A DNA stretch of 64,000 nucleotides from Mycolicibacterium alvei (lineage in GTDB: Bacteria > Actinomycetota > Actinomycetes > Mycobacteriales > Mycobacteriaceae), in contig NZ_AP022565.1 in the NCBI RefSeq assembly GCF_010727325.1, positions 868,001-932,000 of the forward strand, given 5' to 3'. The notes beneath the pieces are model-generated. The model made no database searches and had not been told where the DNA came from. It saw only the letters and a program-made list of their open reading frames with translations. Below, piece by piece: positions 44,352 to 48,984 of the stretch. The position numbers and the translations under genes were made by a program. Each line of letters opens with the position of its first letter. Positions within the stretch are counted from its first letter, which is position 1.

Positions 44352-44425
44352 GCCCTCGTATCCCAACTGGCAGAGGAAACGGATTCAAAACCCGTACAGT
44401 GTGAGTTCGAATCTCACCGAGGGCA
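44352..44425 (+). tRNA. tRNA with CAA anticodon (Leu), short variable loop
   Basis: A 74-base cloverleaf. The acceptor arm is GCCCTCG with CGAGGGC, the D-arm TCC/GGA, the anticodon loop TTCAAAA read as CAA, the variable loop five bases (ACAGT), the T-arm GTGAG/CTCAC around TTCGAAT and the discriminator A. CCA is not encoded. CAA means leucine, but bacterial tRNA-Leu normally has a long variable arm. There is also an A-C mismatch at the base of the anticodon loop. It is the probable integration site of the element beginning 28 bases downstream. Confidence 0.85.
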
Positions 44426-44452
44426 CTTTTTCGCTGCGCTTATCAACGCAGG

Positions 44453-45794: not shown

Positions 45795-45995
45795 ATGTCT
45801 GTACTGCCAGAACTTTTGACGCCGGAAGAAACCGCCGACTGGCTCGGAATGTCCGTCGATTCGCTTTCGCAAAATCGCTATCTGCGAAACGAGCACAGTA
45901 TCCCTCACGTAAAAATAGGGGGACGTGTGCGTTATCTCAAAGACGACTTGATCGAGTACGTCAAGAAAAACCGTCGCGTCAGCAACGGGGCGTAA
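45795..45995 (+). CDS. Excisionase-like HTH DNA-binding protein
   Basis: A 66-residue protein with a MerR/excisionase-type winged helix: LLTPEETADWLGMSVDSLSQ then RYLRNEHSIPHVKIGGRVRY and LKDDLIEYVK. The HTH_17 pattern (choice of helix, then a positively charged strand pair) is clear. It is divergent from the integrase, GGGAAAG before ATG 45795, and ends 2 bases before the primase start. It could direct excision, replication control or both. Confidence 0.85.
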   Translation: MSVLPELLTPEETADWLGMSVDSLSQNRYLRNEHSIPHVKIGGRVRYLKDDLIEYVKKNRRVSNGA

Positions 45996-45997
45996 AC

Positions 45998-48226
45998 GTG
46001 GCTCTGTATCCCGAGCATCTAAAGATGCTCGCGCACTCTGGCATTTCGTCAGAGTTCGCCAATCAACGCGGCTACGAAACCATCGTTAACAGCCAACTTC
46101 TAAAACCGTTGGGATTCAACCAAGCCCAACAAAAACTAGGGCAAGGTCTCCTAATACCGCTTCTGCGTGCCGATGGCACCGTGTCGGGTTACCAATTTCG
46201 ACCCGACACCCCGCGTCAACATCAGAACGGCAAAGACAGAAAGTACGAAACGCCATCGCGTCAGCGCAACGTTCTGGACGTACCTCCCGGCGTAGGCGGT
46301 TGGCTGGACGATCCCAGTTTTGATTTGTGGATTACCGAGGGAACGAAAAAAGCCGATTGCGGGGCAATCCACGGTTTGTGCATCGTGGCGTTGTCCGGCG
46401 TCTGGAACTGGTGCGGTACCAACGACTTTGGCGGAAAAACCGTGCTGGCTGACTTCCATGACATTGCCCTAAACGGCCGACGTGTGGTCCTGGCGTTCGA
46501 CGGTGACGCAGCGAGAAACCCTGACGTGTTTCAAGCAATGTGCAGTCTTGCGGATTGGCTCAAAACAAAAGATGCCCGCGTCGAGTATTTGCACTTGCCT
46601 GACAACGGTGATTCCAAAGTTGGGTTGGATGACTACCTCGCCGAACACTCGCTTAGCGACCTATTGAAATTGGTAAAGAACCATCCGCCGGTCGCTGACG
46701 GGGGAAAACATGTTGCCGATGAACACAGATTCAAAGACGCTTACATAGGGCAGGAAATCGCAGATACCTACCTAAAACGCGAATACATCTACACCGGTTC
46801 GTTCGGATGGATGAAATTCGACAGCAGACGATGGACGCCGATAAGCCAACCGGTCGTTGAGGACGTTGTTCGTCGTGCGGTTATCGACATGCTCGAAAAA
46901 GCATCGAACAAAAATCTCGGCGTCCATGTGTTGAAACCACTCGCCGCGCTTCTGTCAGCTAGCCGCATTGCCGCAATTTTGCGAATCATCAAGGGATACC
47001 TTGCAACTGACGCCGAAGATTTCGACGCGCACCCACATTTACTAAATGTAAAAAACGGCGTGGTGGATCTTCGTAATGGAAACTTGAGGCCGCACGATCC
47101 AAACCTGAAACTCACAAAAGTCACGATGGTTGATTACGTCAAAGATGCCATACACGAAGACTGGAATGCTGCCCTTACTGCATTACCCGAAGACGTGACG
47201 CACTGGCTGCAAATGAGATTCGGTCAGGGCATAACTGGCCATCCGGTTCCCGATGATAAATTGGTGATTCTGAAAGGCTCTGGCGAGAACGGAAAGACAA
47301 CTGTTGTTGACGGCGTGCGGTTCGCACTTGGAAGTGACTACGCCGTGACGCTGCCGGATCGTGTTTTGTTAGCACGCAACGGAGACCACCCAACAGAAAT
47401 GATGGTTCTGCGTGGTGCACGCTTGGCGTTCATGGAGGAATTTCCAGAGTTGGGACATTTGAACGTTAAGCGTTTGAAAGACTTGCACGGAGTTGGGCAG
47501 ATTTCGGCGCGATACTGTGGAAAAGATACGGTGTTCTGGGAACCAAGTCACACAATCTTTGTGACAACGAACTATCTGCCGAGAGTTGACGAATCCGACC
47601 ACGGAACGTGGCGACGTTTAGCACTAGTGCCGTTTCCCTACAAATATGTAAAGCCAAACAAGCCGATTACAAACGAGAACATGGAAAGAACTGGCGATCC
47701 TGACTTGCGTACTCGCCTACGGAACGGTCGTAACGGTCAGCATGAAGCCGTACTTTCTTGGCTAGTCGCGGGGGCGGTTCAGTGGTACAGAGGAGAACAG
47801 ACTATGCCTGACGAACCACAATCGGTGATTACAGCTACGCGTAAATGGCGTGCCAGCGCTGATCTGTTATTGCGATTCTTCGACGACAAGATAGTTTTCG
47901 ATCCCGAAGCGCACGTGATAAGTACCGAACTATACGCGGTTTTTGCAGACTGGTTGAAGTCACACGGTCACGTTCCTTGGGGTGACCAAAATTTCAGTGC
48001 GCGGCTGAGTCAACATAGTGAGATTTCGCTACGTGGTGTTGAAAAGAAACAGATCAGAAAAAACCAAAATCTCTCTAGAAACGGCTACGCCTTCGCTTCG
48101 ACGGAGCCTGTTCCGGCCCGCTACACCGCGTGGGCAGGGATTCGGTTTCGTCGTGCCGACGACAGGGGTCAGGACGAGCCTGACCAGCACAAATGGAAAG
48201 TGGTGAGGGGTGGCAAGGGGCTCTAG
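45998..48226 (+). CDS. DUF3854-Toprim / SF3 helicase primase protein
   Basis: A 742-residue replication protein. The first ~220 residues are a DUF3854 (Toprim-like) unit with WITEGTKKAD (E114) and the D168-x-D170 pair in VLAFDGDAAR. A D5_N-like region follows at about 260-400. The SF3 helicase core comes next: Walker A GSGENGKTTVVDG near 427, Walker B-type FMEEFPE near 479 and the sensor TIFVTTNYLPRVD. The tail (~600-742) is winged-helix-like. It should prime and unwind element DNA, as in P4-type satellites. GTG 45998 follows the HTH stop by two bases. Confidence 0.85.
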   Translation: MALYPEHLKMLAHSGISSEFANQRGYETIVNSQLLKPLGFNQAQQKLGQGLLIPLLRADGTVSGYQFRPDTPRQHQNGKDRKYETPSRQRNVLDVPPGVGGWLDDPSFDLWITEGTKKADCGAIHGLCIVALSGVWNWCGTNDFGGKTVLADFHDIALNGRRVVLAFDGDAARNPDVFQAMCSLADWLKTKDARVEYLHLPDNGDSKVGLDDYLAEHSLSDLLKLVKNHPPVADGGKHVADEHRFKDAYIGQEIADTYLKREYIYTGSFGWMKFDSRRWTPISQPVVEDVVRRAVIDMLEKASNKNLGVHVLKPLAALLSASRIAAILRIIKGYLATDAEDFDAHPHLLNVKNGVVDLRNGNLRPHDPNLKLTKVTMVDYVKDAIHEDWNAALTALPEDVTHWLQMRFGQGITGHPVPDDKLVILKGSGENGKTTVVDGVRFALGSDYAVTLPDRVLLARNGDHPTEMMVLRGARLAFMEEFPELGHLNVKRLKDLHGVGQISARYCGKDTVFWEPSHTIFVTTNYLPRVDESDHGTWRRLALVPFPYKYVKPNKPITNENMERTGDPDLRTRLRNGRNGQHEAVLSWLVAGAVQWYRGEQTMPDEPQSVITATRKWRASADLLLRFFDDKIVFDPEAHVISTELYAVFADWLKSHGHVPWGDQNFSARLSQHSEISLRGVEKKQIRKNQNLSRNGYAFASTEPVPARYTAWAGIRFRRADDRGQDEPDQHKWKVVRGGKGL

Positions 48227-48290: not shown

Positions 48291-48331
48291 AAGACTTATA
48301 AGACCAACGGAAAAGAATTGGAGAGTGAGAA

Positions 48332-48390
48332 ATGACAGCCGTCAGCGTGGAAGATCGCGGCGTGGCATTCACTCTACGAAGTGCCTACGA
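48332..48390 (+). pseudogene. 5' fragment of an element gene, cut at the deletion point
   Basis: ATG 48332 is preceded by a strong GGAGAGTGAG and begins MTAVSVEDRGVAFTLRSAYD, about 20 codons with element-type base use. The open frame then continues to 48538, but only as the antisense of the mmpL fragment (many Gln/Arg/Asp, low complexity). The real gene is therefore truncated near 48390. The family cannot be told from 20 residues. Confidence 0.55.
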
Positions 48391-48523
48391 TAGTCAAGAT
48401 AACCGTGATCGCCAACCAGCCCAGGATGATGGGCACCGCCAGCAGGCGGACCATGCGCGCGATGAACGGCGGGCGCTGGGCTACCGGCAAGGGCTCTGTC
48501 AGAGGTTCGTCGTCGGTGCTCAT
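48374..48523 (-). pseudogene. mmpL: mmpL 5' fragment (truncated)
   Basis: A 49-codon remnant: a polar leader, then RPPFIARMVRLLAVPIILGW and LAITVILTI, the first membrane helix of MmpL transporters (normally ~950-1000 aa). The match to MmpL ends near 48390, and four unrelated codons and a TAG follow. ATG 48523 overlaps the mmpS stop in ATGA, the normal mmpS-mmpL coupling. The remaining ~900 codons are absent to the left, where the mobile element lies. Confidence 0.85.
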
Positions 48524-48951
48524 GCTGCCTTCAACTGACAGAAGGTGAATGCGCTCACGCCGGTTCGAACCTTCTCGTCTTTCACCTCATCGCCGACGAG
48601 GATGCGGCAACCGATGGAATCAGAGTTGCCCTGTGCGCTGAGATTTCCCATCGCCGTCGCATCGGAGATGGGGAACTCCACTGACCACGGCAGGGTTGCT
48701 TCCCTGATGAGTTGCGGCTCGGCATCAGCATCGAAATAGCTGATGGTCGCAACGGTCCCGGGCGGGCCGAACACCTCGTACACCAGGTGCTTGGGATCGT
48801 GGGGCCGCTTCTCTTCACGTTCGGCGCTGGTGTATGCGGGGCGGCTCTCGCTGCCGAAGACGCCGTGCAGCCGTGACACGGTAAATCCGCCTGCAACCCC
48901 TACCACCACGAGCACCAGTGGAATCCACAGCCGCTTCAGGATCCTGAAAAT
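48520..48951 (-). CDS. mmpS: MmpS family protein
   Basis: A 143-residue single-span protein: FRILKRLWIPLVLVVVGVAG as membrane anchor, then a beta-rich domain with VYEVFGPPGTVATISYFDAD, SVEFPISDATAMGNLSAQGN and a C-terminal RILVGDEVKDEKV ... AFTFCQLKAA. MmpS proteins partner MmpL lipid/drug exporters. The partner is broken here, so this one is orphaned. The best ribosome binding site (GGAGGA) points to an ATT start at 48951, the usual MmpS first residue; GTG 48984 is the nearest ordinary start and gives 154 residues. Confidence 0.82.
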   Translation of the reverse strand: MFRILKRLWIPLVLVVVGVAGGFTVSRLHGVFGSESRPAYTSAEREEKRPHDPKHLVYEVFGPPGTVATISYFDADAEPQLIREATLPWSVEFPISDATAMGNLSAQGNSDSIGCRILVGDEVKDEKVRTGVSAFTFCQLKAA

Positions 48952-48984
48952 CGCGAGTTCCTCCGCCTGTCTCCGTGCCGGCAC

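What the first reader, a model, noticed from the sequence alone, without database searches (positions are those of the whole stretch)
48326..48523. One deletion point that cuts an element gene and mmpL head-on
Seen: a gene starting at 48332 with a strong ribosome binding site keeps a protein-like reading for about 20 codons and then becomes the antisense of mmpL. From the right, an mmpL reading from 48523 leftward is normal up to about residue 45 and then ends in four odd codons and a stop. Both breaks fall at about 48385-48395. MmpL proteins are normally close to 1000 residues, so some 900 codons are missing. This explains why no attR is found: one deletion removed the element's right part, attR and most of mmpL.
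Basis: partly seen in the sequence, partly recalled or inferred. Interest (0 to 1): 0.7.

Follow-up and report, generated by a model that had tools for sequence, protein, structure and literature searches.

The report
Deletion fusing mobile element to mmpL
A mycobacterium lost the right end of a mobile element together with a neighbouring gene cluster for a surface glycolipopeptide, probably in one deletion, leaving a half element joined head-on to the first 45 codons of a transporter gene; its sister species shows a similar loss with a different join.

Summary
On the minus strand, mmpL similarity runs from 48523 and stops at about 48388. All 15 intact clade relatives have a full mmpL (open frames of 983 to 1001 codons); here a 49-residue stub remains. 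On the left lies an element in tRNA-Leu(CAA) with integrase, HTH protein and D5-type primase-helicase. A further gene, starting at 48332, runs into the same junction. No second att copy exists in the genome. The deletion reading is supported, but the loss is larger than thought. In ten linked relatives, 30 to 58 kb separate the tRNA from the start of mmpL. That stretch holds peptide synthetases, glycosyltransferases, methyltransferases and mmpL genes. It matches a second glycopeptidolipid (GL8P-type) locus better than the classical one, and the parts tested have no ortholog left in this genome. The sister species G123 also lost it, with a different element fused to a break inside mmpS. Three further relatives lack the locus at this place. 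So: an ordinary mechanism with an instructive outcome, a locus beside an integration hotspot, lost twice in the sister pair or lost once and trimmed again. The assembly was not checked with reads, and the parental element is unknown.

The parts
44352..44426 (+). tRNA-Leu (CAA); its 3' end is attL of the element
   Evidence: ARAGORN. With a query running to 44432, the best alignments of 14 of 14 relatives and 12 of 12 end at 44426; 26-base core unique in own genome
44453..45583 (-). tyrosine integrase, intact; R195, H302, R305, H328 and Y338 present (motif recalled, read by eye)
   Evidence: Pfam PF00589 E 2e-22, phrog_1 integrase, translation, numbering
45795..45995 (+). small HTH_17 protein (excisionase-like)
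   Evidence: PF12728 E 4.4e-10, phrog_668 and phrog_66
45998..48226 (+). D5/P4-type primase-helicase, open frame of 742 residues
   Evidence: PF08706, PF12965, PF03288; TIGR01613; translation
48332..48387 (+). first about 19 codons of a further element gene, cut at the junction; ribosome binding site GGAGAG at 48320-48325
   Evidence: no match of its first 22 residues in 50,697 phage records (a short query of low sensitivity)
48387..48388 (.). deletion junction (uncertain by about 6 bases or slightly more)
   Evidence: column-by-column comparison with 15 relatives
48388..48523 (-). remnant of mmpL, first 45 codons; the stub frame ends with a stop at 48374
48520..48984 (-). mmpS, open frame; part similar to relatives 48523-48945
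   Evidence: ORF; PF05423 E 8.1e-57

Best explanation
An integrative element (integrase, HTH protein, primase-helicase) entered the 3' end of tRNA-Leu(CAA), next to a second-GPL (GL8P-type) lipopeptide locus. A later deletion, probably of 30 to 70 kb, ran from inside the element to about codon 45 of the mmpL next to mmpS. It removed the right part of the element, attR, the peptide synthetases, glycosyltransferases, methyltransferases, the other mmpL and most of this mmpL. What remains should be unable to excise for want of attR, and the strain should not make the lipid of this locus. Shown: both truncations at one point, absence of attR, absence of orthologs of the tested parts of the locus, and the intact arrangement in relatives. 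Inferred: order of events, a single step, size of the deletion, repair by end joining without long homology, and the effects.
For: Junction placed with 15 relatives. 15 of 15 intact clade relatives show similarity to the synthetase end of the G118 locus 0.1 to 4.6 kb after the tRNA, or after attR in G020 (gaps), and full mmpL. From tRNA end to the start of mmpL it is 30.5 to 58.5 kb in 10 linked relatives against 4.0 kb here. Own genome: one 185-base match at 85% (window 48402-48586) to the G118 mmpL query; the next best is a 73% paralog of a kind that relatives also carry. A 3.9-kb methyltransferase block has no better match than 473 bases at 73%, against 82 to 84% over the full block in 4 of 4 other intact genomes. 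Element-bearing relatives show the site with a second att copy. mmpS has 1 private replacement and 7 private silent codons, no sign of decay.
Against: No read data, so an assembly join is not excluded. No close intact relative of this element was found in the genus sample (best primase by score 55%); 85% and 70% proteins exist without context. So the element-side break and any microhomology cannot be fixed. Both G000 and its sister G123 lack the locus (tree support 100/100), so an older loss with later changes is possible. The mmpS counts do not separate the cases: over 94 codons G000 has 0 replacements and 4 silent, G123 4 and 5, but the intact relative G280 has 4 and 6. For this reason, and because my first odds summed to more than one, I lowered this confidence from 0.87.
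Confidence: 0.73

Rival explanations
1. The locus was lost first, in the common ancestor of G000 and G123, and the element entered later, or several nested deletions produced the present join.
For: G000 and G123 are sisters (100/100) and both lack the locus.
Against: Breaks differ (mmpL codon 45 against mmpS codon about 95 to 99) and the fused elements differ. An element entering after the loss should leave attR between itself and mmpL, which is absent; this does not speak against nested deletions.
Confidence: 0.2
2. The join is an assembly artefact.
For: Not excludable without reads.
Against: The genome is in 2 contigs; the junction query has a single match there at E 1e-60; tested parts of the missing locus are found nowhere else in the assembly; a sister species has a comparable state.
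Confidence: 0.04
3. The element ends naturally near 48387 and its integrase joined it to a secondary att-like site in mmpL.
For: A 7-base GGCACTT occurs at the join on the minus strand, as at the tRNA end; noticed by eye.
Against: Local alignment of the tRNA end with the junction region scores no better than shuffles on either strand (995 and 791 of 1000 shuffles as high). The gene starting at 48332 is cut. Elements at this tRNA in G020 and G327 are 10.6 and 15.1 kb long with 47- and 24-base att repeats.
Confidence: 0.02
4. Inversion or translocation moved the rest of mmpL and the locus elsewhere.
For: None found.
Against: Own genome searched with mmpL, methyltransferase and peptide-synthetase parts of the G118 locus; only paralog-level matches, at most 73 to 75%.
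Confidence: 0.01

Closest known systems
Second GPL locus (GL8P) of Mycobacterium abscessus, MAB_4689c to MAB_4705c (PMC11978893; abstract, outline and passages seen)
   Same: The locus intact in relatives has two adjacent peptide synthetase genes, glycosyltransferases, methyltransferases and MmpS/MmpL. 14 of its 15 compared G118 proteins have a match, 50 to 84% identical (8 of 14 above 70%), in a locus of G091 that lies about 600 kb from the classical-type GPL locus of that genome.
   Different: In this clade it lies at tRNA-Leu, has two mmpL genes and differs in synthetase size; in the window genome it is deleted. That the G091 locus equals MAB_4689c to MAB_4705c is inferred from content and spacing; G091 is unnamed.
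GPL locus deletion of M. massiliense type II, 24.8 kb, 10 genes (PMC3878547; abstract and one section read)
   Same: A surface lipopeptide locus with peptide synthetases lost by deletion.
   Different: There the classical GPL locus, with mmpS4-mmpL4a-mmpL4b kept; here the second-type locus, the break inside mmpL, and an integrated element as the other end.
Integrative elements at the same tRNA-Leu in the clade (G020, G327, G123)
   Same: Tyrosine integrase near the tRNA end or att copy, and a repeat of the tRNA end.
   Different: Here attR and the right part are missing; integrases are only 28 to 50% identical.

Membership tests
Integrative element at a tRNA gene | integrase next to the tRNA 3' end | tested here: met
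Integrative element at a tRNA gene | att repeat at both ends | tested here: not met
   one copy only in the genome: a truncated element, not an intact one
Second GPL (GL8P-type) locus, in relatives | peptide synthetases, glycosyltransferases, methyltransferases, mmpS/mmpL with best similarity to the second rather than the classical locus | tested here: met
   Pfam and NCBIfam on G118 genes (2 of the 10 proteins have no Pfam match). For 13 of 15 G118 proteins with a hit in the five compared loci the best identity is to the G091 second locus, 50 to 84%. Exceptions: the TylF-like protein (matches only classical-type loci) and the mmpL farther from mmpS (best to the third locus).
Second GPL (GL8P-type) locus, in relatives | lipooctapeptide product | not testable with these tools
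   lipid analysis needed; products vary between species according to PMC11978893 (passages)
Classical GPL locus | gene set mmpS4 to gap as in PMC3878547 Table 1, highest similarity to it | tested here: not met
   the classical-type locus of G091 matches 8 of 15 G118 proteins, at 56 to 68%
Deletion allele | flanks and intervening DNA together in relatives, intervening DNA absent from own genome | tested here: met
   three parts of the locus were searched in the own genome, not every gene

The most novel reading that the evidence does not exclude
Elements at this tRNA-Leu promote or stabilise the loss of the neighbouring surface-lipid locus, for instance because losing a phage receptor or surface coat protects the lysogen. 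Two sister species would then show recurrent, element-linked loss rather than coincidence.
Probability: 0.06. Interest if true: 0.7.

Novelty: new member of a known kind. Interest (0 to 1): 0.42.

Why it matters
Loss of surface glycopeptidolipids changes colony form and host interaction in related species (abstracts of PMC3878547 and PMC11978893), and the second locus was described in 2025. Here it sits beside an integration hotspot. Among 20 examined clade genomes it is present in 15, truncated in 2 and absent at this place in 3, and in both truncated cases the left end of the deletion lies in an integrated element. This gives a concrete genetic basis for a patchy lipid trait and two losses that can be compared.

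Tried and rejected
Classical GPL identity of the lost locus was my first reading; it was rejected after comparing both loci of G091. A secondary att site at the join was tested and not supported. The mmpS substitution counts first seemed to show an older loss in G123 than in G000; the intact G280 has as many replacements, so they do not. Close relatives of the element: none in IMG/VR with the primase; phage and plasmid records are all under 60% for the primase; the best listed phage integrase is 54%, and 2 records in the 60-80% band of that call were not inspected. The cut gene at 48332 has no phage match and only chance-level matches in 14 fetched loci. The G327 element matched the window element in 150 bases of DNA and, by protein, in integrase and HTH only, not the primase. 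Of 25 named mmpS loci, 24 have an mmpL frame of 967 codons or more; the exception, L161 (M. talmoniae, a 4.4-kb contig, mmpS 62% identical), was not followed up. Of 90 genomes with the right-flank gene at E 1e-150 or better, own included, only the top 20 were examined. Reports on lipids of this complex (PMC4021744, passages) say that GPL are found in some species and strains and other lipids in M. fortuitum; they cannot be tied to this genome. PMC1885439 and PMC7396536 were seen as passages only and carry no claim here. Searches for a report of this deletion (titles and abstract beginnings, apart from the papers named) gave none.

Full report
What is there. tRNA-Leu(CAA) lies at 44352-44426. 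It is followed by a tyrosine integrase on the minus strand, a small HTH protein and a D5/P4-type primase-helicase. A further gene opens at 48332 behind a GGAGAG site. From the right, mmpS is an intact frame (PF05423) and mmpL starts at 48523 but ends after 49 residues.

Where the break is. Aligned without gaps to 15 relatives, mmpL columns agree up to 48394 and again at 48390-48388, with 0 of 15 at 48393 and 48391; then 0, 1, 0, 0 of 15 at 48387, 48386, 48384, 48382. Scattered agreement continues (48385 and 48381 15 of 15; 48379-48377 14, 15, 12 of 15). Of 396 genus genomes searched with the junction, own included, 23 match at E 1e-60 or better; the 22 others all begin at 48388 or to the right of it.

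attL and attR. The 26-base tRNA end occurs once in the genome with up to 2 mismatches. Relatives with an element at this tRNA keep a second copy: G020 47 bases, G123 26 bases, G327 24 bases. The G327 element of 15.1 kb has an integrase 49.6% identical to the window's over 379 aligned columns, in the same orientation beside the tRNA, and an HTH protein at 33%. It is the nearest complete comparator, although it lacks this primase.

What is missing. In 15 clade genomes the tRNA (attR in G020) is followed after 0.1 to 4.6 kb by similarity to the synthetase end of the G118 locus. In the 10 where both ends lie on one contig, tRNA end and start of mmpL are 30.5 to 58.5 kb apart; here 4.0 kb. In the other five (G020, G176, G336, G134, G192) the two ends lie on different contigs. 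In G118 the stretch holds peptide synthetases, glycosyltransferases (two tested), three methyltransferases (one TylF-like), an SfLAP-family protein, two genes without a Pfam match and two mmpL genes. Fifteen G118 proteins had a hit in the five loci compared. Fourteen match a locus of G091 (C1:4815-4850 kb) at 50 to 84%, and for 13 it is the best (for example synthetases 62 and 77%, glycosyltransferases 63 to 81%, the mmpL next to mmpS 83%). The classical-type GPL locus of the same genome (C1:4208-4248 kb) matches 8 at 56 to 68%. By eye its gene order agrees with PMC3878547 Table 1. PMC11978893 describes such a second locus in M. abscessus, 600 kb from the first, making a glycosylated lipooctapeptide, with products that vary between species (passages). 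Exceptions: the TylF-like protein matched only classical-type loci, and the mmpL farther from mmpS matched a third locus best.

Deletion, not displacement. In the own genome the G118 mmpL query finds a 185-base match at 85% (window 48402-48586) and otherwise paralogs at 73% or less. The methyltransferase block is absent (best 473 bases at 73%; 82 to 84% in 4 of 4 other intact genomes). Not every gene of the locus was searched. The genome does keep another locus with synthetases, a Pks2-like polyketide synthase (NCBIfam score 2399.9 against a cut-off of 2400 on a part of the protein) and two mmpL at C1:4422-4476 kb; G118 has a comparable one. So the strain is not free of lipopeptide genes.

The sister. 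G123 is the sister of the window genome (100/100 on 3.2 kb of chromosomal DNA). It has also lost the locus. At its tRNA lie two elements in tandem, separated by the 26-base copy. The second one (integrase; an HTH-like and a DnaB-like gene named by eye) has no att copy at its right end and runs into mmpS at about codon 95 to 99. Breaks and elements differ from the window, which leans to two separate events; an older shared loss trimmed later is possible. The mmpS counts do not decide: over 94 codons 0 private replacements and 4 silent in the window, 4 and 5 in G123, but 4 and 6 in the intact G280. Three more relatives (G140, G327, G048) have the flanks but neither the locus nor mmpS at this place; whether they lost it or never had it is open, as the deep branches of the tree are weak.

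How it most likely came about. A deletion with one end inside an integrated element and the other inside mmpL. Because tRNA-Leu and the genes left of it are conserved, a deletion that clears the locus must end in the short spacer or, where there is one, in the element; this alone may explain why both truncated genomes have an element at the join. End joining is the likely repair route (inference; recalled that mycobacteria have Ku/LigD); no similarity to the att core was found at the join, and a repeat between the two original ends cannot be tested because the parental element is unknown. The remnant integrase has its catalytic residues but no attR, so the element is probably locked in place.

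Verdict. Observation confirmed, reading supported and enlarged: a partly deleted element and a lost second-GPL-type locus share one junction. The mechanism is ordinary; the linkage to an integration hotspot and the parallel in the sister species make it worth recording.

Noticed in passing
G123 C2:535638-564890 (L108, L075): Two different elements in tandem at the same tRNA-Leu with a 26-base att copy between them; the second is truncated and fused to mmpS, a parallel to the window.
   Followed up: partly
L232/L231 (G327 C1:4541179-4556250): 15-kb element at the same tRNA-Leu with a 24-base second att copy and an integrase 49.6% identical to the window's.
   Followed up: partly
G140, G327, G048 at tRNA-Leu: Flanking genes present but no second-GPL-type locus and no mmpS at this place, so the locus is present or absent as a block in this clade.
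   Followed up: partly
G000 C1:4422001-4476000 (L246, L247, L220): Another locus in the own genome with synthetase-like frames of 7595 and 3804 residues, a Pks2-like polyketide synthase and tandem mmpL.
   Followed up: partly
G280 and G296, between tRNA-Leu and the synthetase end of the locus: About 4.5 kb where the other 13 relatives have 0.1 to 1.1 kb; no att copy and no match to the window's element proteins.
   Followed up: no
window 45998-48226: Primase relatives of 85% (P0004) and 70% (P0005) identity sit on short contigs of 4,066 and 10,994 bases that could hold complete elements.
   Followed up: no
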